Assembly: GCF_000737325.1 (NCBI RefSeq)
Contig: NZ_CP011125.1
Span: 1,612,001 to 1,676,000 of the forward strand
From: Sandaracinus amylolyticus
Lineage (GTDB): Bacteria > Myxococcota_A > Polyangia > Polyangiales > Sandaracinaceae
Direction of reading: 5' to 3'
Length of the DNA stretch: 64,000 bases
This document shows, piece after piece, positions 6,852-46,148 of this stretch; position 1 is the stretch's first letter; each line of letters begins with the position of its first letter. The translations under genes and the position numbers were made by a program. Under the pieces are notes generated by a model that worked only from the letters and a program-made list of their open reading frames with translations, was not told the DNA's origin and searched no databases.

Positions 6852-7756
6852 CAACAGTCGTCGCGCACGTAGCCCGCTTCGCCGAGCGGCACGAGATCGA
6901 GGTCGCGCAGCACGATCGAGAGGTCCGGGAAGTCCGCGCATCCCGCGGTGAAGTCGGCCTCGCGATACTCGATCACGAGCACTCCGTCGCCGTACGCGTC
7001 GACGTAGTCGCCGCACTCGTCGTAGCGATTGCACTCCTCGGCGACCGCGAAGTCGGTGCCCATCTCGTCGCGCCGCGCGAGCAGCTCGGTCGAGTTCTTC
7101 TGCGCGATCGCGAGCCCACGCCCGTGCGCGACGTCCGAGAGCAGACGCATGAACGCGACCGCCTGGTCCTGCGTGAGCAGCCCTTCCGAGCGCGCGTACG
7201 AGTCGAGGTTGTCGATCTCGATCGCGTCGAAGCCGTCGTCCGCGCACTGCTCGATCCAGCCGCCGACGATCTCCGCGAGCGCCGCGCGCTTCTCGGGCGT
7301 GCGCGTGTCGAGCAGCATCTCGTCCCAGTCGCGATCGATCACGGGATCGCCGCTCGCGTCGCGCAGCACGAGGTCGGGATGCTCGGCGAGCCACCACTCC
7401 GACGCGTCGGGCTGGGCCTGGAAGCCGTTCACGTAGCAGAGGTTGTAGAGCCCCTCGGCGAGCGCCTCGGTGCGATCACGCGAGACGATCTGCACGCCGC
7501 TCGGCGGGGCGTACGCGCCGCCGAGCTGGTAGTCGAAGCCGGCGTTCGCGGGAGGCAAGCGCGGCTCGTCGGCGCTGCCTCCGTCGCGCGCCGTCGCGGC
7601 GTCGTCGCCGGGCCGCGCGGCGTCTGGACCGCGCGTCGCGCCGTCCATCACCGCCGCGTCGGGGACGGCCGCGTCGATCGGCGTCGCGCCGTCGTCATCG
7701 TCGCCGCCGCACGCCGAGAGACCGAGCACCACGATCGCGATGCCGAGACGCTTCAT
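6851..7756 (-). CDS. GH114-like (endo-alpha-1,4-polygalactosaminidase family) lipoprotein
   Basis: A 301-residue lipoprotein (MKRLGIAIVVLGLSACGG, lipobox LSAC). An Asp/Ala-rich linker (about 20-65) leads into a TIM-barrel-type domain with the GH114/TM1410 pattern: YQLGGAYAPPSGVQIVSRD, an early LCYVNGFQ strand, WDEMLLDTRTPEKRAALAEI, GFDAIEIDNLDSY and GLAIAQKNSTEL. The conserved acidic residues of the barrel (the D-N-L-D motif) are present. Known family members cleave polygalactosamine, an exopolysaccharide component. It is coupled to a downstream GNAT gene by TGATG. Substrate is inference from family; the fold call is good. Confidence 0.82.
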   Translation of the reverse strand: MKRLGIAIVVLGLSACGGDDDDGATPIDAAVPDAAVMDGATRGPDAARPGDDAATARDGGSADEPRLPPANAGFDYQLGGAYAPPSGVQIVSRDRTEALAEGLYNLCYVNGFQAQPDASEWWLAEHPDLVLRDASGDPVIDRDWDEMLLDTRTPEKRAALAEIVGGWIEQCADDGFDAIEIDNLDSYARSEGLLTQDQAVAFMRLLSDVAHGRGLAIAQKNSTELLARRDEMGTDFAVAEECNRYDECGDYVDAYGDGVLVIEYREADFTAGCADFPDLSIVLRDLDLVPLGEAGYVRDDC

Positions 7757-7771
7757 GCGCTCCGTTGTACG

Positions 7772-8044
7772 TCATTCGCGGCCGAAGCGGATCCGGTTCC
7801 GCTCGCGCGCCTTCTCGGCCTCGACGTCGCGATCGCGCGGCGCGGCGTTCGTCGTGAGCGAGACGAGCAGCTCGCGCGCGACCTCCGCGACGTCGTCGAC
7901 GGCCTTCTGGAACGCGGCCTCGTTCGCCTTCGACGGTGCGTTGAACCCGCTCAGCTTCCGCACGAACTGCAGCGACGCAGCGCGGATCTCCTCTTCGGTC
8001 GCGGGCGGCTCGAAGTTGAAGAGCACCTTGATGTTGCGGCACAT
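7772..8044 (-). CDS. DUF2277 small protein
   Basis: A 90-residue soluble protein beginning MCRNIKVLFNFEPPATEEEI, the invariant opening of the DUF2277 family, with the expected length of about 90. The rest is helical (AASLQFVRKLSGFNAPSKANEAAF). Function is unknown throughout the family. It lies 9 bp downstream of nudC and 15 bp upstream of the GH114 gene in a same-strand run, so co-transcription is likely. Confidence 0.9.
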   Translation of the reverse strand: MCRNIKVLFNFEPPATEEEIRAASLQFVRKLSGFNAPSKANEAAFQKAVDDVAEVARELLVSLTTNAAPRDRDVEAEKARERNRIRFGRE

Positions 8045-8053
8045 GCCGAGAGG

Positions 8054-8821
8054 TTATCGCGCCTCGCGCGCCCATGCGTCGATCAGCTGTCGCGCGATGC
8101 TCATCGGCGCCGGCACCATCGGGAGCTCGTCCGCGCGGAACCACTGCGCGTCGGCGATCTCGACGCCGTCGACGCGCACCTCGCCGGACGTCCACTCCGC
8201 CATGAATCCGATCATGAGCTGGTGCGGGTACGGCCAGGGCTGGCTGCCGAAGTAGCGGATCGCGCCGATCTCGATCCCGACCTCCTCGCGCACCTCGCGC
8301 GCGAGCGCTTCCTCGAGCGTCTCGCCGATCTCCACGAAGCCCGCGAGGGTGCTGTAGAACGGCATCGGGAACCGCGGGCTGCGCGCGAGCAGCGCGCGAT
8401 CGCCTCGTCGCACGAGGCCGATCACGACGGGCGAGATGCGCGGGTACGACGTCAGCTCGCACGCTGGGCAGCGCAGCGCGCGCTCGCCCTCGACGGGCAC
8501 GGTCGGCGTCGCGCAGCGACCGCAGAAGCGATGGGTGTCGACGAAGCCCGCGAGCTGCACCGCGCGCATCGCGCAGCCGAACACCTCGGCGCCGACCATC
8601 GCGTGCAGGGCGCGCAGGCCGATCGCGGAGTAGGGCGGCGGGAGCGCGTCGCGCGCGAGCGAGCACACCCACGACGTCGCGCCGCCGAGCTCGCCGACGC
8701 GGCGCGCGCTCGCGGCGTCGAGGCCGAGCGCGAGCAGATCGCCTTCGTCGAGCAGCGGGCTCGCGTCGCGGAGAACCAGGCCCTTCGGGTGAGTGACGAG
8801 GAAGACGCGCGCGATGTCCAT
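8054..8821 (-). CDS. nudC: NAD(H) pyrophosphatase NudC
   Basis: A 255-residue Nudix enzyme starting MDIARVFLVTHPKG. A zinc ribbon is present (CGRCATPTVPV then CPAC, about residues 98-117). It is followed by the Nudix box GFVEIGETLEEALAREV-REEVGI with all catalytic Glu residues. Downstream is SQPWPYPHQLM, the NudC-specific NADH motif (usually SQPWPFPxS). Expected reaction: NADH to NMNH plus AMP, or removal of the NAD cap from RNA. Length is normal. It is 52 bp downstream of a TDP2-like gene in the same direction. Confidence 0.93.
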   Translation of the reverse strand: MDIARVFLVTHPKGLVLRDASPLLDEGDLLALGLDAASARRVGELGGATSWVCSLARDALPPPYSAIGLRALHAMVGAEVFGCAMRAVQLAGFVDTHRFCGRCATPTVPVEGERALRCPACELTSYPRISPVVIGLVRRGDRALLARSPRFPMPFYSTLAGFVEIGETLEEALAREVREEVGIEIGAIRYFGSQPWPYPHQLMIGFMAEWTSGEVRVDGVEIADAQWFRADELPMVPAPMSIARQLIDAWAREAR

Positions 8822-19715: not shown

Positions 19716-20071
19716 GAGATCAGGTTCGGGATCACCGGGCGGATCTCGACCGAGCCTCCCCCGGCGAGCATCGGGCAGCCCTTCGAGAGCTCGACCGCCT
19801 GCGCGAGGTCGCGTGCCTCGATCACGATGAAGCCCGCGACGAGATCCTTCACCTCGACGTAGGGCCCGTCGGTGACGACCGCGTCCTTGCCGCGGACGAC
19901 GCGCCCGCTTCGCTCGAGCGGCAGACCGCCGCTCTTCAGGTGACCGCCTGCTTCGAGCTCGCGCGTCCACGCGAGCCACTTCTGCATGCTCTGCTGCGCG
20001 CGCTCGGGCGTGCCCATCGCGTCGCGCTGCGCGTCGTCGCTCGCTCGGAAGAAGAAGACGAACTCGCTCAT
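19712..20071 (-). CDS. DGPF/YCII-domain protein
   Basis: A 119-residue protein with the family hallmarks MSEFVFFFRAS at the N-terminus, KDAVVTDGPYVEVKDLVAGFIVIEARDLAQAVELSKGCP (the DGPF-like motif is DGPY here) and a C-terminal VEIRPVIP. DGPF proteins are the conserved partners of ECF42 sigma factors; their biochemical activity is not settled. Start overlaps the stop of the upstream DHFR-like gene (ATGA) and its stop overlaps the sigma gene start, so all three are one coupled operon. Confidence 0.92.
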   Translation of the reverse strand: MSEFVFFFRASDDAQRDAMGTPERAQQSMQKWLAWTRELEAGGHLKSGGLPLERSGRVVRGKDAVVTDGPYVEVKDLVAGFIVIEARDLAQAVELSKGCPMLAGGGSVEIRPVIPNLIS

Positions 20072-20676
20072 CGCGGATCTCCTCGGCGCGTGTAGCGCAG
20101 CATCACGTTGCCCGATCGGTACGCCTTCGCCTCTTGCAGTGCGAGCTCGGACGAGAGCGACCCACCGTCGAGCCAGGGTCGACCGCGCCCGAGCAGCAGC
20201 GGGCACACGACGAGCTGGTACTCGTCGATCAGCCCGTGCGCGGTGAGCGCCGACACGATCGAGCCGCTCCCGAACACGATCACGTCCTTGCCCGGGCTGC
20301 GCTTGAGCGCTTCGATCTCGCGCGGCTCGAACGCGCGCACGAGCTTCGAATTGCGCCACGTCGGTGTCGCGAGAGTCCGCGAGAACACCCACTTCGTCGC
20401 TTCGTCGATCATGCGGCCCATCGCGCGCATCTCGTCGGAGCGACGCCCCGGCGCGTGAGGATCTTCGTCGGTGGGTGCCGCGCCCTCGGCCGGGCGCCAC
20501 GCCACCTCGAACATCTCGAACGTGCGGCGGCCGAGCAGGATCGTGTCGAACCGCGGGATGGTGGACGCCGCGTCGCGGTCGAGCTCGGGATCGGGCACCG
20601 CCCAGTCCAGGCTCCCGTCGGGGCGCGCGAAGAATCCGTCGCTGCTCACTCGCTCGAACATCACGATGCGTCGCAT
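20068..20676 (-). CDS. Dihydrofolate reductase-like (RibD C-terminal domain) protein
   Basis: A 202-residue protein starting MRRIVMFERVSSDGFFARPDG. RibD_C/DHFR-fold landmarks are TILLGRRTFEMFEVAW, ATKWVFSRTLATPTWRNSK, SPGKDVIVFGSGSIVSALTAHGLIDEY and VVCPLLLGRGRPWLDG. Such YyaP/YwjB-like proteins bind NADPH but usually lack a proven substrate. It is the first gene of the operon with the DGPF protein and ECF42 sigma factor, a frequent association. The promoter must lie in the 115-bp gap 20677-20791; I see no confident ECF motif there. Confidence 0.9.
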   Translation of the reverse strand: MRRIVMFERVSSDGFFARPDGSLDWAVPDPELDRDAASTIPRFDTILLGRRTFEMFEVAWRPAEGAAPTDEDPHAPGRRSDEMRAMGRMIDEATKWVFSRTLATPTWRNSKLVRAFEPREIEALKRSPGKDVIVFGSGSIVSALTAHGLIDEYQLVVCPLLLGRGRPWLDGGSLSSELALQEAKAYRSGNVMLRYTRRGDPR

Positions 20677-20791
20677 GGCGCTCCTGGCCCGGCGTGGCGC
20701 GCGAGGACGTCCCTCGCTCGCCCGCCGGTCGAGACATCGACGTTCGAGCCGGCGCGCGCCGGACACTTTTTTCGCGACGGTCGGTCGGTGC

Positions 20792-21334
20792 TCAGGGGTC
20801 GCGACGCGAGCGCCTCGCCGCGGCCTTGGGGCGCTGCGTGCGGCGCTCGGCCGGGAGATCGGCGAGGCACGCGAGATCTTCGAGCCACGCGATGTAGCTG
20901 CCGACGTACCCCGGCGCGATCGCGACGAGCTCGTCGAGCGCGCGCGCCGCGACCGCGGCGCCGTTGTACGGGCCGGCCGCCTCGGGAACCTGCTCGGCCG
21001 CACGCGCGGTCGCCGCGCTGGCGCGGATCTCGGACACGATCGCGCTCGAGCGCTCCTCGGCGCACACGCGCTTCGGCCGCGCGTGCGCGCGTGCGGCGAG
21101 CGCGTCGCGCCACGCGCTCTCGTCCGGCGCGCTCGCGGGCCGCGGGACGCTCGACGGCGGGCGCTCACGATAGGCGTCGAGCAGCGCCTCGGCGCGTGCG
21201 AGCAGCCGCGCGCGGCCGCTCGCCGGCAGCGACTCGGCGCGCTCGATCAGAGTCCGGACGAGCGCGAGCCCTTCGACGTCTCCGGTCTGCTCGCTCTCGG
21301 CGAGACGCAGCCGCGCCGCGAGCTCGTCGCTCAC
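20792..21334 (-). CDS. DUF2894 protein, fourth gene of MotAB-like cluster
   Basis: A 180-residue protein from a GTG start overlapping the MotB-like stop (GTGA). It has ELAARLRLAESEQTGDVEGLALVRTLIERAESLP, a middle Pro-rich linker, then LDELVAIAPGYVGSYIAWLEDLACLADLP and a basic tail. The N-terminal helical repeat and the conserved YNGAAVAARALDEL/YVGSYIAWLEDLA region match DUF2894. The family is found almost only downstream of DUF802 and OmpA genes. Soluble and cytoplasmic; role unknown, perhaps a cytosolic partner of the membrane motor. Confidence 0.75.
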   Translation of the reverse strand: MSDELAARLRLAESEQTGDVEGLALVRTLIERAESLPASGRARLLARAEALLDAYRERPPSSVPRPASAPDESAWRDALAARAHARPKRVCAEERSSAIVSEIRASAATARAAEQVPEAAGPYNGAAVAARALDELVAIAPGYVGSYIAWLEDLACLADLPAERRTQRPKAAARRSRRDP

Positions 21335-22032
21335 CAAGCGCCTCCGACCATGCGCGGCACGGGCGCGATCTCGACGCGCCGATTGCGCGCGCGGTTCTCG
21401 TCGGTGTCGTTGGGCGCGACGGGATGCGTCTCGCCGAACCCGGCGCCGAACACGCGATCGCGCGACACGCCCGCGGCGATCAGCGCGCGCACCACGGTGA
21501 GCGCGCGCTCCGCCGAGAGCTGCCAGTTGTCGCCGTCGGCCGCACGGCGCGGCAGATCGTCGGTGAAGCCGCTCACCATGATCATCGCGTCGTGCGCGTC
21601 GAGGTACGCCGCGAGCGGCGCCGCGACGTCGGTCAGCACCGAGCGCCCTTCGGCCTTCAGCTCCGACGAGTTGAGATCGAACAGCACGCTGCCGCGGATC
21701 CCGATGCGACCGCCCTCGAGGCTGATTCTCCCGGCCGCGAGCGGCCCCGCGAGCGCGCGCTCGAGCGCGGCGAGCCGCTCGCGCTCGGCCTCGGCGCGGG
21801 CGCGATCCGCTTCCGCTCGCGCACGCTCCTCCGCGGCGCGCGCGCGCTCCTCGCGGAGCTCTTCGGCGGTGCCGACCTCGAGCACGACCGCCCACGTGAA
21901 GAAGAGGGCGAACATGCCGAAGAGGCACGCCATCATGTCGCCGAACGCCGGCCACACCGGCGCGCGCTCGCCGTCTTCTTCCTCGTCACGCGCGAACACG
22001 CGTGGTCTCCGCCGCGCCCTGGGCGCGTCCAC
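21331..22032 (-). CDS. MotB/OmpA-type stator-like protein
   Basis: A 233-residue protein. One membrane helix (about 27-50) reads PAFGDMMACLFGMFALFFTW, with the Asp placed where MotB and ZorB carry the proton-binding Asp. A charged coiled coil follows (about 55-95), then an OmpA-like peptidoglycan-binding domain (VLFDLNSSELKAEG, GFTDDLPRRAADGDNWQLSAERA, GAGFGETHPVAPNDTDENRARNRRVEI). The ATG at 22032 overlaps the DUF802 gene by 47 bp. A GTG at 21999 is an alternative start. With DUF802 it should form an inner-membrane ion-driven complex anchored to the cell wall. Confidence 0.88.
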   Translation of the reverse strand: MDAPRARRRPRVFARDEEEDGERAPVWPAFGDMMACLFGMFALFFTWAVVLEVGTAEELREERARAAEERARAEADRARAEAERERLAALERALAGPLAAGRISLEGGRIGIRGSVLFDLNSSELKAEGRSVLTDVAAPLAAYLDAHDAMIMVSGFTDDLPRRAADGDNWQLSAERALTVVRALIAAGVSRDRVFGAGFGETHPVAPNDTDENRARNRRVEIAPVPRMVGGAW

Positions 22033-24265
22033 GCAGCGCGCGCAGCTCCGCGAAGAGCTCGCGCTGCACCTCGAGGGAGTGCTCGAACACCTCGCGCGTC
22101 TGGTCGAGGTAGTCGGTGAGCAGATCGATCGCGGCCTTCTTGCCCGCGTGATCGACGGCGTCGTCGAGCCCGGCGAGCGCGCTCAGGCACGCGGCGCTCG
22201 CCTCGCGATAACGATCGACTGCGCTCGTGAACACCTCCGCGACGGCGCCCATCTCGACGCCGCTCGCGCGCAGCAGCCCCGCCGTGTCGTCGACGAGCGA
22301 GCGCGTCGCCGCGAGCCCCTGCGCGAGGCCCTCCGCGTGCTGCTCGAGGAGCGCGACGAGGCGCGCCGCCGACGCGTCGTGCGCCGCGAGCCAGCGCGCC
22401 TCGAGCGCGGTCTGGCGCTCCGCCTGATCGTCGAGCACGCGATCCGCGCGCTGCGCGACCTGCTCGGCCGCCGCCGCGAGCCCGGAGAGAACCGCCTCGG
22501 TGCGCGCGGCCTGGGCGCGCTCGGCGGCCTCGTGCGCGGCGATCCAGCGCGCTTCGAGCTCGCCCTGACGCTCCGCGTGCGCGGCGAGCACCTCGCCGGC
22601 TCGCGCGGAGACCTGCTCGGCCGTTCGCGCGAGCCCGGAGAGGACCGCCTCGGCGCGCGCGGCCTGGGCCCGCTCCGCAGCGTCCCGCGTCGTGATCTCG
22701 TCGCGCGTCGCGCTCACCACGCGCTCCGCCGCTGCGCCCGCCTCTTCCGCGCGTCGCGCCGCCTCCGCGAGCATCGTGCTCGTCGTCTCGGTCAACGCGG
22801 CCGCGTGCTCGCGCAGCACCGCATCGAGCGCCACCGCACGATCGGCGGACTCGCGTGCTGCGTCGCGCTGCATCGCGCTCATGCGCTCGAGGTGCGTCGC
22901 GAGCGCCGCGTCCACCGCTTCGACGTGGCGCTCGAGGCGCGTGAGCGCGTGCGCCTCGGCGCGCGCGAGCGCCGACGTCCGCGCCTCGATCGCCTCTTCT
23001 CGCGCTCGCTCGCGCGCCAGGCTCCGCTCCACGTGCGCCTCGAGCGCCGCGCTCGTGCCCTCGAGCGTGCGATCGAGCCGCGCGCGCGTGGTCTCGAGCT
23101 CTCCTGCGAGCGCCTCGATCATCGCGCCGACGGTCGTCGTCGTCGCGGCGAGGCGCGCCTCGAGATCGTCGCTCGTCCGCTGGGTGCGTGCGCCGAGCTG
23201 CGCGGCGAGCGCCTCGATGCTCGCGCCGAGGCGCGCGTCGAGCGACACCAGGCTCTCGCCGAGCGCGCCGCGCAGCTCACCGAGCACCCGCGCTCCTTCG
23301 CGCGCCACGCGATCGGCGCTCTGCCCCGCGGCCTCCGACCACGCGTCGGCGAGCGCGGCGTCGCGCGCACGACGGGCCTCGGCCTCGCGCTCCACGATGC
23401 GCGTCCAGTCGTCGAGGCGCTCGCGCGTGACGTCCGACGCGCGCGTCACCGCGCGCTCGAGCGCGGGCGTGAGCGAGCGCTCCACCGCGCGCGCCACGTC
23501 GGCCACCCCGCTCGCCACGTCGCTGCGCAGCGCCGCCGCCGTCTTCTCGATCGCCGCGCTCGCGCGCGCCGCGGCCGCCGCCGACTCCGCGTTCTGTCGC
23601 ACCAGCGCCTCGAGCACCGCGATCTGGCGCTCCGCGATCGTCAGCGGTCCCAGCGCGTCGTCGGCGTAGACGTGCACCGCGCTCGCGAGCGACGTCTCGA
23701 CGCGTCGCGCGAGCACCGACGCGAGGCCGAGCATCGCCGACGCGCACAGGCCCGCCGCCGACGTGCCGAACGCGCGGCTCAGGCCGAGCATCGGCGTCGC
23801 CAGCGCGTCGCGCAGCGCGTCGATGTCGCTGCTCGCGCCGAGCGCCTCGCGCGCACCGCGCAGTGCGTCGACCAGGCCGAGGAAGGTCCCGAGCAGACCG
23901 ACCATCACCAGCAGCCCGACGAGGTACGACGCGAACCCCGCGCTCGGGATCGTCGCGCGCACGCCGCCGAGACGTGCGCGCAGCACGGTGCGCAGCGACG
24001 CGCTCGTCGCGTCGATCGCCTCGAGCGTCGCGGGCCGCGGCAGCTTCGCGAGCTCGCCCTCGACGCGCTCGACGCGCGCCACGCGCCCGAGCAGCTCGAC
24101 GATGCCGAGCGCGAGCCCCGCCGCGATCAGCAGCGCGAGCCCGAACGCCACGCGATCGACGTCCAGATAGAACGCCGCGGTGCGCGCCGCGATCAGCACG
24201 CCGATCGCGCCGGCGCCGACGATGCCGAGGCGCGTGCCCCGGTGACCACCCCGCTTCGCGCTCAT
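21986..24265 (-). CDS. DUF802 MotA/ZorA-like channel protein with long coiled-coil tail
   Basis: A 759-residue protein. Four membrane helices lie near 12-33, 38-60, 112-136 and 157-187. The third contains GLLGTFLGL, the motif shared by MotA, TolQ/ExbB and ZorA channels. The remaining 550 or so residues are an Ala/Glu/Arg-rich coiled-coil tail facing the cytoplasm. Within it, about residues 528-578 and 579-629 are near-identical tandem repeats (AERAQAARxEAVLSGLA). A conserved YLDQTREVFEHSLEVQRELF segment closes the protein. The start overlaps the DUF3348 stop (ATGA). Such a long tail resembles ZorA of the Zorya defence system, although the DUF802 family is distinct. Confidence 0.85.
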   Translation of the reverse strand: MSAKRGGHRGTRLGIVGAGAIGVLIAARTAAFYLDVDRVAFGLALLIAAGLALGIVELLGRVARVERVEGELAKLPRPATLEAIDATSASLRTVLRARLGGVRATIPSAGFASYLVGLLVMVGLLGTFLGLVDALRGAREALGASSDIDALRDALATPMLGLSRAFGTSAAGLCASAMLGLASVLARRVETSLASAVHVYADDALGPLTIAERQIAVLEALVRQNAESAAAAARASAAIEKTAAALRSDVASGVADVARAVERSLTPALERAVTRASDVTRERLDDWTRIVEREAEARRARDAALADAWSEAAGQSADRVAREGARVLGELRGALGESLVSLDARLGASIEALAAQLGARTQRTSDDLEARLAATTTTVGAMIEALAGELETTRARLDRTLEGTSAALEAHVERSLARERAREEAIEARTSALARAEAHALTRLERHVEAVDAALATHLERMSAMQRDAARESADRAVALDAVLREHAAALTETTSTMLAEAARRAEEAGAAAERVVSATRDEITTRDAAERAQAARAEAVLSGLARTAEQVSARAGEVLAAHAERQGELEARWIAAHEAAERAQAARTEAVLSGLAAAAEQVAQRADRVLDDQAERQTALEARWLAAHDASAARLVALLEQHAEGLAQGLAATRSLVDDTAGLLRASGVEMGAVAEVFTSAVDRYREASAACLSALAGLDDAVDHAGKKAAIDLLTDYLDQTREVFEHSLEVQRELFAELRALRGRAQGAAETTRVRA

Positions 24266-25107
24266 GCGAGCCGCTCACCCAACGTGTTGCGCACCAGCAT
24301 GTCCAGGCGCGCGCGCTCGTGCAGGAACGACGCGACGACGAACGCCTCGCAGCGCGCGACGTGCTCGCCGACCGGCCCGCTCGGGCTCGCCCACGTCGCG
24401 AGCGGCACCTCGTCGCACGGCTTCGGCAGCGCGAGCACCGCGACCTCGAGGTCTGCCGCGAACGCATCGCGCATCGCGACGATCGCACGGGAGAAGAGCG
24501 CGTCGGATCGCGCCGAGGTCGCCTGCCCGAGCGCCGCGTCGATCTGCTCGAGACGCGCGGCGTTCGGCGCGCTCGCGGCGATCGTCGGTGCGATCTCGCG
24601 ACGCACTTCGGCGACGAGCTGCCGCACCGCCGTGATCCTGCGCAGCATCTGGGTCTCGAGCGGCGCGAAGAGATCGTGCGCCGCGCTCGCGATCGCCTTG
24701 CGCTGCCGCGTCGCGGGCACGCCGGCGCGCTCCAGGGCGTGCGCGATCCGATCCGGCGCCGCGAACGACGCGCCGGTCCGCGGATCGGAGAGAGGCCGTC
24801 GCACGTCGCGCTCTGCGCTCGCGAGCCGCTGCCGTGCGATCGCGATCGCCTCGCTCGCGCCCCAGCTCGCGCTCGCCGCGGATGGTGTCGTCTCGAGCGC
24901 CTGCGCCAGCTGCACTGCGCCCTCGAAGTCGAGCAGCTCGGGGAGCAGCTCCGCGCCGTGCCGCGAGCGCGCGGGTGACGAGCGACCCTGCGACGACGAA
25001 GAGCCCTGCGACGACGCGCGAAGCGCGGCAGTCGCGCTCGCCAGCGGACGGCGGGGGGACACGGGGCGGTGGAACAGCGGGCCCAAGCGCCGCTGCTTAG
25101 CGGACAT
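24262..25107 (-). CDS. DUF3348 protein, first gene of MotAB-like cluster
   Basis: A 281-residue protein starting MSAKQRRLGPLFHRPVSP. A Ser/Gln-rich N-terminal stretch is followed by LLPELLDFEGAVQLAQALE, a helical middle part (AAHDLFAPLETQMLRRITAVRQLVAEVR) and a C-terminal VGEHVARCEAFVVASFLHERARLDMLVRNTLGERLA. This pattern and its place directly before DUF802 match DUF3348. No membrane helix or enzyme motif is seen. Arg-rich sequence upstream of 25107 is not coding. Role unknown; probably a cytoplasmic component of the same complex. Confidence 0.75.
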   Translation of the reverse strand: MSAKQRRLGPLFHRPVSPRRPLASATAALRASSQGSSSSQGRSSPARSRHGAELLPELLDFEGAVQLAQALETTPSAASASWGASEAIAIARQRLASAERDVRRPLSDPRTGASFAAPDRIAHALERAGVPATRQRKAIASAAHDLFAPLETQMLRRITAVRQLVAEVRREIAPTIAASAPNAARLEQIDAALGQATSARSDALFSRAIVAMRDAFAADLEVAVLALPKPCDEVPLATWASPSGPVGEHVARCEAFVVASFLHERARLDMLVRNTLGERLA

Positions 25108-25238
25108 CGCCACCCGCGCGCAACGTGGACGCCCCCGGATCGTCGCGGTCCAGCGCGCATTCCGGGCCTCCCACGCGCGATCGCAGATGCGGCAGCGAGC
25201 CCCAGCCCACGACGGGGCGATCGCCCCAGCGCACATTC

Positions 25239-25266
25239 TTGTCGCCGCGGAGCAGGCTTCTATCTG
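25239..25266 (+). promoter_or_regulatory. Candidate sigma70-type promoter of the pqq operon
   Basis: TTGTCG (25239-25244) and TATCTG (25261-25266) are separated by 16 bp in the 167-bp gap between the DUF3348 operon and pqqA. If correct, transcription would begin within a few bases of the pqqA ATG at 25275, giving a leaderless message. This agrees with the lack of a ribosome-binding site there. Weak matches; low certainty. Confidence 0.3.
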
Positions 25267-25274
25267 AGCGTCGG

Positions 25275-25406
25275 ATGGAGCCGATCGATGCCGACCTCGC
25301 ACCGGAGCCCGACGAGGACGACGACGAGTGGGCGCCGCCGACGTTCGTCGAGATCAAGATGGACGCCGAGATCGGCGCCTATCAGAGCGACGACGCGACG
25401 AGCTGA
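25275..25406 (+). CDS. pqqA: PqqA precursor peptide of pyrroloquinoline quinone
   Basis: A 43-residue peptide with an acidic leader (EPIDADLAPEPDEDDD) and a C-terminal core WAPPTFVEIKMDAEIGAYQSDD. The Glu and Tyr that PqqE cross-links are present with the required spacing (E-I-G-A-Y), as is the conserved W-x-x-P-x-F entry. PqqA peptides are usually 22-30 residues, so the acidic extension is long; a shorter start is not obvious. It stands 9 bp before pqqB at the head of the complete operon. It is small and easily missed, but the context makes it secure. Confidence 0.9.
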   Translation: MEPIDADLAPEPDEDDDEWAPPTFVEIKMDAEIGAYQSDDATS

Positions 25407-25415
25407 GGGGCGCGC

Positions 25416-26300
25416 TTGTTCGTCCGAGTCCTCGGCGCGGCCGCGGGAGGTGGCTTCCCGCAATGGAACTGCGGCTGCGCGCAGTGTGCCGGCGTGCGCG
25501 CCGGGACGATCCGGGCGACCCCGCGAACGCAGGAGTCCGTCGCGGTGAGCGCCGACGGCGAGCGCTGGATCCTGCTCAACGCGTCGCCCGACGTGCGCGC
25601 CCAGATCGAGGCGTTCGCGCCGCTCCATCCACGTCCACCGCGGCGCACACCGATCGCCGCGGTCGTGCTCACCAACGCCGATCTCGATCACTGTCTCGGA
25701 CTGCTCGGCATGCGCGAGGGGACGCGCCTGTCGGTGCTGTCCACCGACACCACCCGTCGCGCGTTCGTCGAGGACAACGTGCTGTGCGGCGCGCTCGATC
25801 GAATCGAGTGGGTGACGCTCGCGCCGGGCTCGACGCGAGAGATCGCGGAGCTCTCCATCGAGGCGTTCCGCGTCCCCGGGAAGCCGCCCCGCTATCGCGA
25901 AGCCGACGCGCATCCCTCCGACGACGACAACGTCGGTCTCCTCGTCCGCGACCGCCGCGGGCGAACGCTCGCCCATGCGCCGTCGGTGCGCGCCTGGACT
26001 GGCGCGCTCTCTGCCGCGCTCGGGAGCGCCGACTGCGCGCTCGTGGACGGCACGTTCTGGTCGGACGACGAGCTGATCCGGCTCGGGCTCTCGACGCGCG
26101 GAGCGCGCCAGATGGGCCATCAGCCGATCGGAGGCGAGGACGGAATCCTCCGAGCCGCGCGAGGAATCGGCACGCCGCGCAAGATCTTCATCCACATCAA
26201 CAACACGAATCCGATCCTCGTCGAGGACTCGGCCGAGCGCGCCGAGGTGTCCGCCGCCGGCTGGGAGGTCGCATGGGACGGAATGGATATCGCGCTGTGA
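25416..26300 (+). CDS. pqqB: PqqB, metallo-beta-lactamase-fold PQQ biosynthesis protein
   Basis: A 294-residue protein from a TTG start. The diagnostic N-terminus VLGAAAGGGFPQWNCGCAQC is present. Downstream are LTNADLDHCLGLLGMREG (the metal-binding T-N-A-D-x-D-H variant of the metallo-beta-lactamase motif) and IFIHINNTNPIL near the C-terminus. PqqB is thought to hydroxylate the tyrosine-derived intermediate before PqqC acts. The length is normal (about 300). The stop overlaps the PqqC start. Confidence 0.95.
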   Translation: MFVRVLGAAAGGGFPQWNCGCAQCAGVRAGTIRATPRTQESVAVSADGERWILLNASPDVRAQIEAFAPLHPRPPRRTPIAAVVLTNADLDHCLGLLGMREGTRLSVLSTDTTRRAFVEDNVLCGALDRIEWVTLAPGSTREIAELSIEAFRVPGKPPRYREADAHPSDDDNVGLLVRDRRGRTLAHAPSVRAWTGALSAALGSADCALVDGTFWSDDELIRLGLSTRGARQMGHQPIGGEDGILRAARGIGTPRKIFIHINNTNPILVEDSAERAEVSAAGWEVAWDGMDIAL

Positions 26301-26983
26301 CCTCCTCCGATGCATTCGTCGCGCGGCTGCGCGAGGTGGGCGAGAGTCGATATCACCATCGCCATCCGTTCCACGTCGCGATGCACGAGGGGACGCTCGG
26401 CCCGGCCCAGCTGCGTCATTGGGTGGCGAATCGATTCTATTATCAGACGCGCATTCCGCTGAAGGACGCGCTGATCCTCGCGAAATCGGAGAGCGCCGAA
26501 TTCCGACGAACGTGGCTGCGCCGCATTCGCGAGCAGGACGGAGACGGAGCGAGCGACGGTGGCCTCGAGCTCTGGTTGCGGCTCGCCGAGGCCGTCGGGC
26601 TCGATCGCGGCGAGGTGATCGCGCATCGGCGCGTCGTGCCCGGCGTGCGCTTCGCGTGCGACGACTACGTCTCGTCGGTCGCGCGGTGGAGCCTGCTCGA
26701 AGCGGTCGCATCGTCGCTCACCGAGTGCTTCGCGCCGGACCTCATGCGCGCGCGAGCGGCCGCGTGGGAGAGGCACTATCCGTGGATCGGCCCGGGCGGG
26801 ACCGCGTACTTCCGTGCGCGCATCGGAGCGGCTCGGCGCGACGCCGACGAGGCCCTCTCCTTCGTCGCTGCGCGCGCGATCACACCCGAGCTCCAGGAGC
26901 AGTGCGTCGCGGCGCTCGAGCGAAAGACCGACATCCTCTGGCACGTCGTCGAGAGCATCGCGACCACGTGCGAGGAGACCTGA
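26297..26983 (+). CDS. pqqC: PqqC, pyrroloquinoline quinone synthase
   Basis: A 228-residue all-helical oxidase. It begins MTSSDAFVARLREVGESRYHHRHPFHVAMHEGTLGP, a very conserved PqqC stretch. Other landmarks are WVANRFYYQTRIPLKDA, FAPDLMRARAAAWERHYPWI and YFRARI. PqqC performs the final ring closure and eight-electron oxidation without cofactor. The GTG start at 26297 overlaps the pqqB stop (GTGA). An in-frame ATG at 26273 would add eight residues and overlap pqqB by 28 bp. Confidence 0.95.
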   Translation: MTSSDAFVARLREVGESRYHHRHPFHVAMHEGTLGPAQLRHWVANRFYYQTRIPLKDALILAKSESAEFRRTWLRRIREQDGDGASDGGLELWLRLAEAVGLDRGEVIAHRRVVPGVRFACDDYVSSVARWSLLEAVASSLTECFAPDLMRARAAAWERHYPWIGPGGTAYFRARIGAARRDADEALSFVAARAITPELQEQCVAALERKTDILWHVVESIATTCEET

Positions 26984-26984
26984 C

Positions 26985-27254
26985 GTGCGCGACGCGCGCC
27001 CGCGGCTCGCGCGCAAGGCGCGGCTGCGTCGCGATCCGATCACCGACGAGCCCTTGCTCGTCGCGCCGGAGCGCGGGCTCGCGCTGAACGCGACGGCCGC
27101 GCGGATCGTCGCGCTGTGCGACGGCGACCGCACCTTCGCGTCGATCGTCGGCGAGCTCGCGCGCGGGCACGATCGCGAGCGCGTCGCGCGAGACGTCGAG
27201 CGCTTCCTCCACGAGCTCGCGGAGCGCGGTCTCGTGTCGTGGGACGGTCGATGA
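26985..27254 (+). CDS. pqqD: PqqD, PqqA-binding chaperone (RRE domain)
   Basis: An 89-residue protein from a GTG start. It has RLARKARLRRDPITDEPLLVAPERGLALNATAARIVALCDGDRTF, the RiPP recognition element fold, then a winged-helix C-terminus (RDVERFLHELAERGLVSW). PqqD binds the PqqA peptide and presents it to PqqE. Length matches the family. It is one base after the pqqC stop and its own stop overlaps the pqqE start. Confidence 0.93.
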   Translation: MRDARPRLARKARLRRDPITDEPLLVAPERGLALNATAARIVALCDGDRTFASIVGELARGHDRERVARDVERFLHELAERGLVSWDGR

Positions 27255-28333
27255 CCGAGCGCGATCCCCACCGGCCGTACACGCTGATCGCGGAGCTCAC
27301 GTACCGCTGCCCGCTGCGATGCGGTCACTGCTCGAACCCGCTCGACTGGGCGCAACACCGCGATGCGCTCGACACCTCGGCGTGGTCGCGCGTGCTCGCC
27401 GAGGCGGCGGAGCTCGGCGTCGTGCAGGTGCACCTCACGGGCGGCGAGCCACTGCTGCGACGCGATCTCGAGCCGCTGATCGCCGCAGCGAGGCGCGCCG
27501 ATCTCTACACGCACCTCGTCACGTCCGGCGTCCCGCTCGCGCGCGAGCGTCTGCGCGCGCTGCGCGACGCGGGTCTCGACGCGATGCAGCTCTCGCTGCA
27601 CGACGCCGACGACGTGAACGCCGACAGCATCGCGGGCGTCCCGGTCGCCGCGCACAAGCGCGAGGTCGCGAGCTGGGCGCAGAGCCTCGAGATCCCGCTC
27701 ACGATCAACGTCGTGCTGCGCGGCGACAACATCGACGGAGTGGACGCGATCATCGCGCTCGCCGAGACGCTCGGCGCCGATCGCCTCGAGCTCGCGAGCA
27801 CGCAGTACCTCGGGTGGGCGCTCGCGAATCGATCCGCGCTGCTGCCCACCCACGCGCAGATCGAACGAGCGCGGTCGGTCGCCTCCGCCGCGCGCGCGCG
27901 GCTCCGCGGACGGATGGAGATCGTGCTCGTCCTGCCCGACTATCACGCGGGCGCGCCGCGAGCGTGCATGGAGGGATGGGCGCGCCGGTTCGTCGTCGTG
28001 AGCCCGGATGGGCGGGTGCTGCCGTGTCATGCCGCGGGCTCGATTCCCACGCTCGAATTCGAGCGTGTCGGCGGCGTGCGATCGCTGGCGGAGATCTGGC
28101 GCAGCTCCCCCGCGCTCGCCGCGTTCCGCGGCGATGCTTGGATGTCCGAGCCGTGCCGCAGCTGCGAGCGCCGCGCGATCGATCACGGTGGATGCCGCTG
28201 TCAGGCCCACCATCTCGCGGGAGACGCCGGCGCGACGGATCCCGCGTGCGATCGCTCCCCGATGCACCACGTCGTGGTGAGCGCATTCCACGACTCGGCG
28301 CCCTCACTGGTTCAGCTCCGCGCGCGCCGCTGA
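27251..28333 (+). CDS. pqqE: PqqE, radical SAM PqqA peptide cyclase
   Basis: A 360-residue radical SAM enzyme. The AdoMet cluster motif is CPLRCGHC in ELTYRCPLRCGHCSNPLDW. GGEPLLRRDLEPLI follows. The C-terminal SPASM domain has its cysteines in ACMEGWARRF, VLPCHAA, CRSCERRAIDHGGCRCQA. It forms the Glu-Tyr carbon-carbon bond in PqqA. Start overlaps the pqqD stop (ATGA). No pqqF-type protease is present in the window. Downstream, 44 bp separate it from nadM. Confidence 0.96.
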   Translation: MTERDPHRPYTLIAELTYRCPLRCGHCSNPLDWAQHRDALDTSAWSRVLAEAAELGVVQVHLTGGEPLLRRDLEPLIAAARRADLYTHLVTSGVPLARERLRALRDAGLDAMQLSLHDADDVNADSIAGVPVAAHKREVASWAQSLEIPLTINVVLRGDNIDGVDAIIALAETLGADRLELASTQYLGWALANRSALLPTHAQIERARSVASAARARLRGRMEIVLVLPDYHAGAPRACMEGWARRFVVVSPDGRVLPCHAAGSIPTLEFERVGGVRSLAEIWRSSPALAAFRGDAWMSEPCRSCERRAIDHGGCRCQAHHLAGDAGATDPACDRSPMHHVVVSAFHDSAPSLVQLRARR

Positions 28334-37857: not shown

Positions 37858-38723
37858 CGATCGCGCTGCTGTTCCCGGGGCAGGGCTCGGAAGAGCCGGA
37901 GATGGGGCTCGCGCTCGCGTCGGCGGATGCGCGCGCGGCACGGCTGCTCGCGCTCGCGTCGGACGCGTGCGCCGTCGACGTGCGACGTGCGATCGAGCGC
38001 GGCGGGCGCGCGATGACGCGCACCGAGGTGATCCAGCCCGCGATCGTCGCGGTCTCGCTGGCGGTGGCGCGTGCGCTCGAGGATCGCGGTCTCGTGATCG
38101 ACTGCGTGCTCGGCCACTCGCTGGGCGAGCTGACCGCTGCGTGCTTCGCGCTCGACGTGCCCGACGAGGACGCGATCGCGATCGCGGCATCACGCGGTCG
38201 CGCGATGGCCGAAGCAGCAGCGACGAGCCCCGGAGGGATGCTCGCGTGCGCGACGACGCCGAGCACGCCGGGTCTCGTGCTCGCTGCGCACAACGCGCCG
38301 GACGAGCACGTGCTCTCCGGACGGCACGACGCGCTCGTCGCGGCAGAGCGAGCCCTCGCGCCCCACGCGCGAAGGCTCGCGGTCGCGGGTGCGTGGCACT
38401 CGCGCGCGATGGAGCCCGCGACGGCGCCGCTCCGCGCGGCGCTCGGAGCGATGAACGGGCGCGCGCCACGCACGACGCTGATCTCGGCGCTCGACGCGCG
38501 AGAGGTCGTCGACGGAGCGCGCGCCGCGGACGTGCTCGTACGCGGGATCGTGTCGCCGGTGCGCTGGGTCGACGCGCTGCGAGCGGCGCGTCATCGAGGC
38601 GTGAGCGAGATGATCGTGGTCGCGCCCGCGCGCGTCGTGCGAAGCCTCGCGCGCCGCACGCTCGGGCCGTCGTTCCCGGTGCGCGCCGTCGCGACGCCAG
38701 AGGACATCGAGAGCGCGAAATAG
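37854..38723 (+). CDS. Malonyl-CoA:ACP acyltransferase (FabD-like)
   Basis: A 289-residue acyltransferase from a GTG start. Landmarks: LLFPGQGSEEPEMG, IQPAIVAVSLAVARAL, CVLGHSLGELTAAC (nucleophile Ser in GHSLG) and AGAWHSRAMEPA (catalytic His). The conserved Arg of malonate-specific enzymes would be near SRGRAMAEAA. It is the last gene of the eight-gene operon, 42 bp before tRNA-Asn. Loads malonyl units on the operon's ACP by inference. Confidence 0.9.
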   Translation: MTIALLFPGQGSEEPEMGLALASADARAARLLALASDACAVDVRRAIERGGRAMTRTEVIQPAIVAVSLAVARALEDRGLVIDCVLGHSLGELTAACFALDVPDEDAIAIAASRGRAMAEAAATSPGGMLACATTPSTPGLVLAAHNAPDEHVLSGRHDALVAAERALAPHARRLAVAGAWHSRAMEPATAPLRAALGAMNGRAPRTTLISALDAREVVDGARAADVLVRGIVSPVRWVDALRAARHRGVSEMIVVAPARVVRSLARRTLGPSFPVRAVATPEDIESAK

Positions 38724-38765
38724 TCCTTGACCGGGACGGACTTCCGGGTAGAGTGCGCGACCCAT

Positions 38766-38838
38766 TCCGGGATAGCTCAGTCGGTAGAGCGATCGGCTGT
38801 TAACCGATTGGTCCCTGGTTCGAGTCCAGGTCCCGGAG
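38766..38838 (+). tRNA. tRNA-Asn (GTT)
   Basis: A 73-nt cloverleaf. The acceptor stem TCCGGGA pairs with TCCCGGA, with discriminator G at 38838. The D arm is TAGCTCAGTCGGTAGAGC. The anticodon loop CTGTTAACC carries GTT, and the T arm is CTGGTTCGAGTCCAG. CCA is not encoded. A strong terminator follows 35 bp later. tRNA genes are frequent integration sites, and this one borders the accessory region. Confidence 0.97.
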
Positions 38839-38860
38839 CTGAGTTGGCCGCTGACCAACG

Positions 38861-39440
38861 GCCGGTAAACAGAAAGCCCCGCGAGAAATCGCGGGGCTTT
38901 CGCCTTTGTGGGCTCCGGCAGAGAGCGCCGGAGGGGTGTCCGAGAGGGCCGGTTCTGGGCCCCAGCGGGGCAGACAGAGCCCAGACGGGTTAACAGGGAT
39001 TCGGCGTGGAGATTCTCCGTCCAGAGGCTGTTAACCCCAGAACGCGCGGAGCGCGCGGCGGTCTCCCCGCCCTAGAAATTCAAGGCGGCGCCCCGCCTAC
39101 GAAGAACTTGAGTTGTTCGCGCGAGAATCGCTGGTACGCGCGATAGTCGACTCAAGGTCAGATAATAGCCGACCGAGGGTCATGTTCTCCGTCGCCACGG
39201 AGAATGCCTGACGGAGATCGTGTCTGCCTTCAGCGCGCGGCCACGGCGCTCGTCAGGCAGGGCGCTTGCCGCCATCGCGCTCCCAGGGACACTGCCGCGT
39301 GACAACGCAGGAACCGTTTGAGGCGCGAGTGCGGCGCATCCGGGAGTCGCGAGATCCGACCGCGCTCGTACGCGAGGCTCTTGCTGACTCACGGGTGATC
39401 AAGTTCGTCGTCGCCTCGCTCGACGAATGCGAGCCCAATG
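38861..39440 (+). repeat. Long degenerate direct repeat, copy 1
   Basis: Copy 1 of a repeat shared with 45594-46125. The order of elements is the same in both: exact 48-bp terminator segment; GGGTTAACAG...CTGTTAACCC inverted repeat (38987-38996 and 39028-39037); a CTTGAGTTGTTCGCGCGAGA segment; GGTCAGATAATAGCCGACCG; a TTCTCCGT-N4-ACGGAGAA hairpin (39184-39203); GACGGAGATCGTGTCTGCCT; then the 5' part of a HEAT-like gene. Identity looks high but declines toward the right. In this copy the HEAT-like gene is intact. No open frame is seen from 38861 to 39298. Confidence 0.85.
38873..38900 (+). terminator. Perfect 12-bp stem with GAAA tetraloop
   Basis: AAAGCCCCGCGA and TCGCGGGGCTTT pair without mismatch around a GAAA loop, ending in a short T-rich run (CTTTCGCCTTT). 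It lies 34 bp after tRNA-Asn and very probably ends its transcript; the symmetric A and T ends allow use in both directions. The same hairpin recurs at 45606-45633. Confidence 0.8.
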
Positions 39441-40060
39441 AGCAGGCGGCTCGCCTCGCGATCGAGGCGCACGATCGCCGTGAGGCGCCATCCTGGCTCG
39501 CAGCAGCGTTGCTGGGCCACGTCCGCCACCGCGTCGGGTACGCGAAGGTGATGGAGATCTTGCGACGCGGGGATGCCTTGCTGAGCGAGAGCTACGCCGC
39601 GGGCAGCGCAGTGCTCATCGCCGGGGCCGCTGCCGAGCGCGATCTCATGGAGGTCGTCGACGCCGTCGAAGACGGCTACGCGCGCAGGGCAGCCGCGCAT
39701 GCGCTGGGCACCATCGGAACCGCGAGCGCGATCGCGTTTCTCGCTGGCGCACCGGCGCGTGGCAGGTTGAGTTGCGCGAGCGTCGCTCACGCGCTCGTCA
39801 CGGCGCCGGTGGAGGCGCGCACGATACTCGAGGCCATGCGCTCGCCGGATCTCGAGACGCGTCGCTGGCCCCCGATGCTCATCGCGGAGCGGCTCCGGTC
39901 CGCAACGCGCGGGGACGCCGCGCGTCCGGCAGTGCCTGACGATCCGGAGCTCCGGAATGCGCTGGCGGCAATGCTCAAAGAGGGGGTCGGCGCGGAAGGC
40001 GTCGTGTGGCGCGCCGACGCTCTCGTCATACGCGACTGGCTCGCGAACGCGGGCCCGTAA
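39299..40060 (+). CDS. HEAT-repeat-like protein in the island
   Basis: A 253-residue soluble protein from a GTG start (MTTQEPFEARVRRIRESRDPTALV). It is helical, with a HEAT/PBS-lyase-like repeat VEDGYARRAAAHALGTIGTASAIAFLAGA near residues 120-150, and ends in LRNALAAMLKEGVGAEGVVW. HEAT repeats mediate protein binding; no catalytic motif is seen. A TTG at 39266 is an alternative start. Pieces of the same gene recur at 41919-42045 and 46021-46125, so this family has been copied and broken within the island. Function unknown. Confidence 0.65.
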   Translation: MTTQEPFEARVRRIRESRDPTALVREALADSRVIKFVVASLDECEPNEQAARLAIEAHDRREAPSWLAAALLGHVRHRVGYAKVMEILRRGDALLSESYAAGSAVLIAGAAAERDLMEVVDAVEDGYARRAAAHALGTIGTASAIAFLAGAPARGRLSCASVAHALVTAPVEARTILEAMRSPDLETRRWPPMLIAERLRSATRGDAARPAVPDDPELRNALAAMLKEGVGAEGVVWRADALVIRDWLANAGP

Positions 40061-40430
40061 CCGAGTTCCTGCTGCGCCGCAATGCGATGCGCGGCGCCAG
40101 CTACACGATGCGATGCGCGATGCCGGGTCCGTCGAGGGGACGCGGAAAGCGTGCGCTTCCGGATTACTGCGAGATCGCGGCCCTCGACAACCACATCGCG
40201 AATGCGATGGTCCTAGCGGCGACGCGGCCGGGACGATCGCTGCTTCGGAAGCCGCCAACGTGCCGCCGCCGCGGGCAAGTGCACGGCTTCGGCGCCGGCA
40301 AGCTCGTGCATAGCTGCCATGTCGTTGCCGCTCGAGAACCGCGCGCCCCGGACCGCCTTCATGAGGCGCAGCAACCCAGCGCGACCTGTTCGTTGCGCTT
40401 CGCGGGGGCGCCGACAATCCTTGCGCGGCG
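40061..40430. other. Gap without convincing gene
   Basis: 370 bp between the HEAT-like gene and the Cys-rich lipoprotein. Short open frames exist on both strands but lack natural composition, and the base composition is less GC-biased than the core genome. I see no repeat, RNA or terminator. It may be decayed coding sequence. Confidence 0.5.
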
Positions 40431-41729
40431 ATGTCTCACCTCCACGCAAGGCTCCTGGTCCTCACCGCCGCGGCGATCTGCGCCTCCTGCTCGGCCGGTT
40501 CCCCATCGCCCGGAGCCCCGGGGACCGACGCCGGCCTCCCTCCGCGCGGGGGACGACCCGTGGGCGATTTCTGCGCGGAACCAAGCGATTGTGCATCCGG
40601 CGTTTGCCTGAACACTGGAGGCGAGTTCTCGTACGAGCTCTGCTCGGCGCCGTGCGAAACCGAGGCCGACTGCGGGTCCGAGATGACCTGCGGGATCGGG
40701 CCGACCGGCGCGCGGATGTGCGTACCGCGGGTCTGCGACACGACGTCTCGCTTCTACAGTTACGTCTGCGTCGACGGCGAGAGCGTCTCCTGCGAGCAGA
40801 CTGACCGAGAAGAGCATTGTGACGTGTGCGGCTGCGGAGACTCGTCGCTCCGCTGCAGTAACGGCGAGTGCTTGCCGCTGAGTAACGTCGGTGGCGATTG
40901 CGCGCGCGACTCCGACTGCCTCACTAACAACTGCAGTCGGAGCGAGTTCGTGTGCCGGGTTCCGGTCGGCAGCCGGTGCGACGACACCAACTGTGACCGC
41001 TGTGTAGTGCACGAAGAGTCCGACTGGCGCTTTTGCACCCGAGCTTGCCGAAACGACGGCGAGTGCAACGGGACGCGCTGCATCGGAAGCGAGTCTCGCG
41101 GATGGGCGTGTCGCCCAGACTGCACCGGCTGTCCGACCCGGTGCTCCCCGCTGAGCGGCGGCGGACTCTACTGTGAATGCCTCGGGTGCGACGATCAGTA
41201 TCCGACCAACCGAGCGCTCTACACGCTCTGCGGCGACGACAGCAGCTGTGCGAGTGGTGCGTGCCTCGCGAACGAAATCTGCACCTCGAGTTGCAGTGCG
41301 GACGCCGACTGCGGTGACCTCGGTCGATGCGTGTCGATCGCGTGCGCGGAGGGCGAGACTGCCGCCTGCGGGAACGTCTGCGTTCAACGGTGCGGGAGCG
41401 AGCTCGACTGCCGCGCCGGCAGCTGCGTTGAGCTTCCCTCGGCCTCGGGCACGGGGGCGGTGTCGGTGTGCGATCCCAGGAAGCCCGACGGTCGGATGTG
41501 CTTCCGCGACCGCGAGTGCCTCTCGGGGCGGTGCCGTGTCGCCCAGGCATGCATCCCCGCCGACGGGCTGGCGAACGGGGAACGGTGTGCGGATCCAAGC
41601 GAGTGTCGCTCGGGCAGCTGTCTCAGCGGAACGTGCCGCGGCACGAGCCTTATCGGTCAGCCCTGCGAGGGCACTGCGGATTGTGCTGCGGGGATGTGCT
41701 GCGACGGAGCGTGCCGTGCCTCGTGTTGA
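40431..41729 (+). CDS. Cys-rich lipoprotein
   Basis: A 432-residue lipoprotein (LTAAAICASC lipobox near residue 20) followed by a Pro/Gly linker. About 60 Cys residues follow in repeats of the kind DCASGVCLN, DCLTNNCSR, SCASGACLANEICTSSCSADADCG, ECRSGSCLSGTC and DCAAGMCCDGACRASC. This is the disulphide-rich style common in secreted myxobacterial proteins (dickkopf-like Cys modules). No enzyme domain is seen. Codon usage is less extreme in GC than the flanking core genes, consistent with the accessory setting. Surface-exposed by inference; function unknown. Confidence 0.8.
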   Translation: MSHLHARLLVLTAAAICASCSAGSPSPGAPGTDAGLPPRGGRPVGDFCAEPSDCASGVCLNTGGEFSYELCSAPCETEADCGSEMTCGIGPTGARMCVPRVCDTTSRFYSYVCVDGESVSCEQTDREEHCDVCGCGDSSLRCSNGECLPLSNVGGDCARDSDCLTNNCSRSEFVCRVPVGSRCDDTNCDRCVVHEESDWRFCTRACRNDGECNGTRCIGSESRGWACRPDCTGCPTRCSPLSGGGLYCECLGCDDQYPTNRALYTLCGDDSSCASGACLANEICTSSCSADADCGDLGRCVSIACAEGETAACGNVCVQRCGSELDCRAGSCVELPSASGTGAVSVCDPRKPDGRMCFRDRECLSGRCRVAQACIPADGLANGERCADPSECRSGSCLSGTCRGTSLIGQPCEGTADCAAGMCCDGACRASC

Positions 41730-46125: not shown

Positions 46126-46148
46126 CGGCCTACTCTAAAACACCCTCG

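What the first reader, a model, noticed from the sequence alone, without database searches (positions are those of the whole stretch)
20792..25107. Four-gene MotAB/ZorAB-like machine (DUF3348-DUF802-OmpA/MotB-DUF2894)
DUF802 has the GLLGTFLGL channel motif and a 550-residue cytoplasmic coiled coil. The MotB-like partner has an Asp in its only membrane helix and an OmpA-type wall-binding domain. This is the architecture of ion-driven 5:2 rotary complexes such as ZorAB, but the effector genes of Zorya (ZorC, D or E) are absent and two small DUF proteins take their place. The cluster type is known from proteobacterial genomes as a conserved set of unknown function; I know of no experimental role.
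Basis: partly seen in the sequence, partly recalled or inferred. Interest (0 to 1): 0.6.

Follow-up and report, generated by a model that had tools for sequence, protein, structure and literature searches.

The report
Type III Zorya anti-phage operon
These four genes are a complete copy of a known bacterial anti-virus machine (Zorya type III: a membrane ion-driven motor plus two helper proteins) in a large-genome myxobacterium; it is a known kind of system, but relatives that kept the helpers while losing the motor give a new handle on how it works.

Summary
In detail: four tightly overlapping minus-strand genes at 20792-25107 encode DUF3348, a MotA-type channel protein with a long coiled-coil tail, a MotB/OmpA protein with one Asp-bearing membrane helix, and DUF2894. 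This is not an uncharacterised cluster. It matches PADLOC's ZorG3-ZorA3-ZorB3-ZorF3 models (E 1e-7 to 4e-75), i.e. Zorya type III, named in 2021, when a Stenotrophomonas copy protected E. coli from phages (PMC8565338). New here: ZorA, ZorF and ZorG co-occur almost perfectly in 282 genomes of the phylum, even where zorG has moved to another contig. ZorA's tail ends in an ~85-residue cap found only with ZorF. Neither small protein has a recognisable nuclease fold; ZorF usually ends in a basic tail. Two lineages (one clean, one possibly decaying) carry zorG, a pore-less zorA keeping membrane hairpin, coiled coil and cap, and zorF, with no zorB: at least two separate motor losses (AU p 0.0035). 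Verdict: new member of a known kind, with a possible motor-less variant in relatives.

The parts
24262..25107 (-). zorG (PADLOC naming), DUF3348, 281 aa; predicted all-helical, no catalytic fold recognised
   Evidence: Pfam PF11828 8e-7; PADLOC ZorG3 1e-7; AlphaFold2 pLDDT 82, pTM 0.76
21986..24265 (-). zorA, MotA-type channel protein ('DUF802'), 759 aa: four membrane helices then ~570-residue cytoplasmic tail
   Evidence: PADLOC ZorA3 6.6e-59; N-terminal profile finds only Shewanella ZorA (8vvn_C, 4e-5) among all solved structures
23873..23899 (-). GLLGTFLGL pore motif of ZorA (residues 123-131), with invariant T127
   Evidence: 37 of 37 sequences
23759..23761 (-). codon of ZorA S169, second invariant pore hydroxyl residue
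   Evidence: 37 of 37 sequences
22028..22300 (-). C-terminal cap of the ZorA tail, specific to type III (GGxELxAVAxMF...YLDQTREVFxxSLxFQRELFxELRAL)
   Evidence: alignment A6; in the phylum found only in genomes that also have ZorF
21331..22032 (-). zorB, MotB/OmpA family, 233 aa (or 222 aa from GTG 21999); one membrane helix
   Evidence: PADLOC ZorB3 4e-75; NCBIfam PRK09040 2.5e-76
21937..21939 (-). codon of ZorB D32, the membrane-helix Asp
   Evidence: 29 of 29 sequences
20792..21334 (-). zorF (PADLOC naming), DUF2894, 180 aa; helical, conserved GPYN motif, shorter middle than most relatives
   Evidence: Pfam PF11445 3e-10; PADLOC ZorF3 8e-15
20795..20848 (-). basic C-terminal tail of ZorF (RRTQRPKAAARRSRRDP)
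   Evidence: net charge of the last 25 residues at least +5 in 71% of 28 ZorF against 6% of 279 neighbouring proteins

Best explanation
This is a complete, host-adapted Zorya type III anti-phage operon (zorG-zorA-zorB-zorF). Five ZorA and two ZorB form a membrane ion channel/rotary motor; ZorB's OmpA domain grips the cell wall, phage attack on the envelope activates it, ions pass the ZorB Asp / ZorA Thr-Ser ring and the motor moves ZorA's long cytoplasmic tail (inferred from types I and II). Type III step, inferred here: the tail's C-terminal cap docks the helical adaptors ZorG and ZorF, and ZorF's basic tail contacts DNA (or the membrane) at the entry site, so the incoming genome is held or blocked without a nuclease encoded in the operon, or a host nuclease is recruited. 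Estimates by step: Zorya III identity 0.97; ion-driven ZorA5B2 motor 0.9; cap-ZorG/ZorF complex 0.6; ZorF as DNA-contacting element 0.35.
For: Shown: PADLOC hits for all four components in the type III order; same order annotated in Betaproteobacteria as DUF3348-DUF802-OmpA-DUF2894. Phage protection by a type III system in E. coli. D32 29/29, T127 37/37, S169 37/37, peptidoglycan-site residues D158, R176, R218, R219 29/29. ZorA and ZorB match the solved type I complex 8VVN. Co-occurrence in 282 genomes: ZorA and ZorG 12 of 13, ZorA and ZorF 12 of 13, ZorG and ZorF 16 of 17, cap and ZorF 15 of 15. Linkage survives loss of the operon: zorG lies on a different contig from zorA in G057, G212, G264 and G227 but is still there. 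ZorG and ZorF models are all-helical with no significant match to any solved structure. Basic ZorF tail.
Against: No assay of this copy. ZorF and ZorG structures were predicted as monomers only; no complex was modelled. ZorF model pTM is only 0.42. The basic tail is absent in a few ZorF (L042, L043, L052). The type I wall-binding His (H186) is Phe in all 29 type III ZorB, so wall binding could differ. Pore-less relatives show that part of the module can persist without a motor.
Confidence: 0.72

Rival explanations
1. Zorya III is mainly a housekeeping envelope machine (a MotAB/ExbBD-like wall- or stress-related motor) and phage protection is a side effect or a secondary use.
For: Five of six genomes of the genus Sorangium carry it with conserved neighbours in four strains; it is core or quasi-core in Ralstonia solanacearum (PMC13064858). 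Neighbours are metabolic genes and no dedicated defence family recurs among 122 flanking proteins, only generic kinases. GC and codon use equal the host's.
Against: Patchy in the phylum: 13 of 282 genomes, absent from the one other genome sampled of its family. A type III system does cut phage plaquing in E. coli. First one or two genes respond in phage-infected B. cenocepacia (PMC12584637).
Confidence: 0.15
2. Abortive ion leak: ZorF and ZorG gate the ZorAB channel, and infection opens it so that the membrane depolarises and the cell stops; no DNA step.
For: Channel residues invariant; no nuclease fold in ZorF/ZorG; Payne et al. proposed ZorF and ZorG as regulators of ZorAB.
Against: Two lineages keep zorG, the ZorA tail and zorF without any pore or ZorB, which a pure gate would not explain. 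In types I and II the current model is ZorAB-triggered recruitment of DNA-acting effectors.
Confidence: 0.15
3. A flagellar-type stator or a TolQR/ExbBD transporter energiser rather than Zorya.
For: Shared MotA/MotB domains.
Against: The ZorA profile finds only ZorA of type I among all solved structures at E below 1, no MotA, TolQ or ExbB; the two DUF genes and the cap are specific to type III.
Confidence: 0.02

Closest known systems
Zorya type III (PADLOC; Payne et al. 2021, PMC8565338)
   Same: All four components, gene order, membrane Asp, OmpA domain, DUF3348 and DUF2894 proteins
   Different: Divergent sequence (ZorG and ZorF only 15-37% identical to relatives); shortened ZorF; host is a myxobacterium, not the Burkholderia/Xanthomonas groups named as usual hosts
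Zorya type I, ZorABCD (8VVN, PMC11890865)
   Same: ZorA and ZorB homologous over the pore and the membrane helix/OmpA domain
   Different: No ZorC or ZorD beside it; wall-site His is Phe; the ZorA tail ends in a cap with no counterpart found in solved chains
Zorya type II, ZorABE
   Same: ZorAB motor plan
   Different: No ZorE nickase
MotAB / PomAB flagellar stators
   Same: Asp in the single MotB helix, OmpA-type wall domain, MotA-type pore
   Different: No long cytoplasmic tail in stators; no DUF3348/DUF2894 partners

Membership tests
Zorya type III | ZorA: MotA/TolQ/ExbB-type channel with long cytoplasmic tail | tested here: met
   PADLOC ZorA3 6.6e-59; four membrane helices plus ~570-residue tail
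Zorya type III | ZorB: MotB-type, one membrane helix with Asp, OmpA wall domain | tested here: met
   PADLOC ZorB3 4e-75; D32 invariant 29/29; OmpA 8e-20
Zorya type III | DUF3348 protein adjacent | tested here: met
   PF11828 8e-7, above cut-off; ZorG3 1e-7
Zorya type III | DUF2894 protein adjacent | tested here: met
   PF11445 3e-10, above cut-off; ZorF3 8e-15
Zorya type III | Confers protection against phages | not testable with these tools
   Shown for the Stenotrophomonas nitritireducens system only
Zorya type III | 5:2 ZorA:ZorB assembly | not testable with these tools
   Solved for types I and II; no multimer prediction on hand
Zorya type I | ZorC (EH signature) and ZorD (helicase) in the operon | tested here: not met
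   Neighbouring genes are RibD-like, YCII, sigma factor and PQQ genes; PF15611 not found in the genome, though that search had no positive control
Zorya type II | ZorE HNH nickase in the operon | tested here: not met
   No such gene adjacent
MotAB stator | MotA without long tail, next to flagellar genes | tested here: not met
   ~570-residue tail; no flagellar genes among the ten neighbours scanned with Pfam

The most novel reading that the evidence does not exclude
The defence-specific part of Zorya III is a separable module: ZorG, the ZorA tail with its cap, and ZorF work together and can persist without the motor. In G254 (L066) an intact three-gene operon encodes ZorG, a 425-aa ZorA that keeps the first two membrane helices, coiled coil and cap but has lost the pore helices, and a full ZorF, with no type III ZorB in the genome; a similar, possibly decaying arrangement in another lineage (G243, L067) arose separately. 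These would be motor-less Zorya-derived systems, and they would place the effector function in ZorG/cap/ZorF.
Probability: 0.45. Interest if true: 0.6.

Novelty: new member of a known kind. Interest (0 to 1): 0.38.

Why it matters
What ZorF and ZorG do is the open question of Zorya III, the subtype without a known nuclease. The type III-specific cap at the end of ZorA, the near-perfect co-occurrence of cap, ZorF and ZorG, and the natural pore-less variants give direct tests: which protein binds the cap, whether the module acts without ion flow, and whether DNA is the target. The window copy itself is an ordinary, intact example in a host group from which few examples have been described.

Tried and rejected
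Nuclease or other catalytic fold in ZorG/ZorF: Foldseek gave nothing below E 0.17 (ZorG) or 1.7 (ZorF); the VIA-align rows (4uos Z 9.8, rmsd 5.0, 184 aligned; MxB stalk Z 7.6) are within what unrelated helical bundles score, so no relation is claimed. Profile searches of solved chains with ZorG, ZorF and the cap found nothing significant. Phage or viral carriage: no ZorA relative in IMG/VR or INPHARED. Defence island: 51 other window genes and 122 flanking genes of relatives hit, among the families displayed, only generic protein kinases (the tool lists just the 25 most frequent of 64 families, so single defence genes could be missed). Recent transfer: GC and codon use match the host. Rfam: nothing in 20000-26000. 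Prevalence in Burkholderia/Xanthomonas could not be counted (no genome handle). Hypergeometric p-values ignore relatedness of genomes and are only indicative.

Full report
Observation. Pfam confirms DUF3348, OmpA and DUF2894 above cut-off. The genes overlap by 4 bp at zorG/zorA and zorB/zorF and by 11-47 bp at zorA/zorB, so they form one translationally coupled operon. An iterated codon-usage gene caller selects all four strongly. GC (0.73-0.77) equals that of the surroundings. The 64-kb window is part of a single 10.33-Mb contig, and ZorB3 is single copy there (245 against 97 bits for the next OmpA protein).

What it is. PADLOC-DB assigns every gene to the same system: ZorA3 6.6e-59, ZorB3 4e-75, ZorF3 8e-15, ZorG3 1e-7. 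Zorya type III was defined in 2021 as the ZorAB pair flanked by DUF3348 and DUF2894 genes, 6,401 instances, and the system from Stenotrophomonas nitritireducens reduced phage plaquing and protected cultures at low MOI in E. coli (PMC8565338). Betaproteobacterial copies carry NCBI's names DUF3348, DUF802, OmpA and DUF2894 in exactly this order. Naming differs between sources: the PADLOC models call DUF2894 ZorF and DUF3348 ZorG, while both papers' text has it the other way round. PADLOC's model names are used here.

Motor anatomy. ZorA has four predicted membrane helices and ~570 residues of tail; ZorB has one helix. In relatives from Myxococcota and Betaproteobacteria, ZorB D32 is invariant in 29 of 29, ZorA T127 and S169 in 37 of 37. 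These match the Asp and the Ser/Thr ring described for the solved type I and II complexes (the S169 correspondence is read from the profile alignment). A ZorA N-terminal profile picks one sequence out of all solved chains at E below 1: Shewanella type I ZorA, 8VVN. ZorB also matches 8VVN over helix and OmpA domain. Wall-binding residues D158, N169, R176, R218 and R219 are invariant, but the His whose mutation abolishes wall binding in type I (H186) is Phe156 in all 29 type III proteins (correspondence inferred from the SGFTDD motif).

Helper proteins. AlphaFold2 with family alignments gives an all-helical ZorG (pLDDT 82, pTM 0.76) and a helical ZorF (pLDDT 80, pTM 0.42). No solved structure matches significantly and none of the weak matches is a nuclease. 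ZorF carries a conserved GPYN...LAARAL...YLRA motif and usually a basic C-terminus: net charge +5 or more in 71% of 28 against 6% of 279 neighbouring proteins. So unlike types I and II, type III shows no nuclease in its operon.

Functional linkage. In 282 genomes sampled across the phylum, ZorA3 is in 13, ZorG in 17, ZorF in 20. ZorA and ZorG overlap in 12 of 13, ZorA and ZorF in 12 of 13, ZorG and ZorF in 16 of 17; the few absences include incomplete genomes and contig ends. In one family (f31) zorG has left the operon yet is retained on another contig in four of five genomes examined, the fifth being 77% complete. The ZorA tail ends in an ~85-residue conserved cap. Its profile finds 15 of the 282 genomes, all of which have ZorF and 13 of which have ZorG; it has no counterpart in solved chains, and betaproteobacterial ZorA ends in a recognisably similar motif. 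The cap is therefore the most likely docking site for ZorF and/or ZorG; this step is inference.

Motor-less relatives. In G254 (L066) zorG is followed by a 425-aa ZorA that keeps the first membrane hairpin, the coiled coil and the cap but lacks the pore helices, then by a complete zorF; starts and stops overlap cleanly. No type III ZorB is found in that genome: its best match is 93 bits starting at profile position 48, the background level, while the control genomes G107 and G267 give 297 and 266 bits. G243 (L067) shows the same arrangement, but its ZorF is shortened and the zorA/zorF junction looks frame-disturbed, so it may be decaying. A ZorG tree places L066 with full systems of its own family (99/94), apart from L067; holding the two together is rejected (p-AU 0.0035), and the state changes at least three times if the ZorA-less genomes G155 and G268 are counted. 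These losses suggest that ZorG, the tail and ZorF form a module separable from the motor. Whether it is functional alone is unknown.

Distribution and context. The system is patchy in the phylum but near-universal and syntenic in Sorangium (5 of 6 genomes; neighbours shared by four strains), and is core or quasi-core in Ralstonia solanacearum (PMC13064858). Flanks are metabolic and show no recurrent dedicated defence genes. It has no relative in the phage or viral collections. This leaves room for a housekeeping role, held here as the main rival.

Mechanism and verdict. By homology, ZorA5B2 couples wall engagement and ion flow to movement of the tail (types I and II). For type III the proposed additional step is that the cap carries ZorG/ZorF and that ZorF's basic tail contacts DNA or membrane at the entry site; only the anatomy and linkage behind this are shown here. 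The window copy is a new member of a known kind; the pore-less relatives are the part worth a specialist's attention.

Noticed in passing
L049 (JAUHYW010000047.1) 7171-8154 +: A eukaryotic-type actin gene (Pfam Actin 6e-88; 415 bits to Dictyostelium actin) lies between intact zorA and zorB of a Zorya III operon; GC3 is 0.97, so it looks adapted to the bacterial host, and the sister locus L054 lacks it. One metagenome contig only; chimera not excluded.
   Followed up: partly
L036, L038, L049, L053, directly after zorF: A DUF2400 gene follows zorF in four loci, overlapping or abutting it in L038 and L053.
   Followed up: partly
G155 (L068, L069) and G268 (L072, L073): Same-genus genomes with zorG and a short zorF on different contigs and no ZorA, cap or ZorB detected; genomes are 81-89% complete.
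   Followed up: partly
window 25275-28330 +: A PQQ biosynthesis cluster begins divergently from zorG: a 43-aa PqqA-like peptide (25275-25403; no Pfam match), a metallo-beta-lactamase fold PqqB-like gene, PqqC-like, a small PqqD-like frame and a radical SAM PqqE-like gene.
   Followed up: partly
window about 38700-53200: Lower GC (0.64-0.72) and weak codon scores with sparse genes, unlike the rest of the window: a possible island.
   Followed up: no
L059, L060 (Clostridia) and L056, L058 (KSB3 group): ZorA-like genes with (Clostridia) or without (KSB3) a ZorB-like partner and no ZorF or ZorG detected; type not determined.
   Followed up: no
L038 7678-8121 +: An EVE-domain gene (3.7e-54) ends where zorG starts in this relative.
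   Followed up: no
PADLOC model names against paper text: ZorF and ZorG are swapped between PADLOC-DB models (ZorF = DUF2894) and the text of PMC8565338 and PMC11890865 (ZorF = DUF3348).
   Followed up: yes
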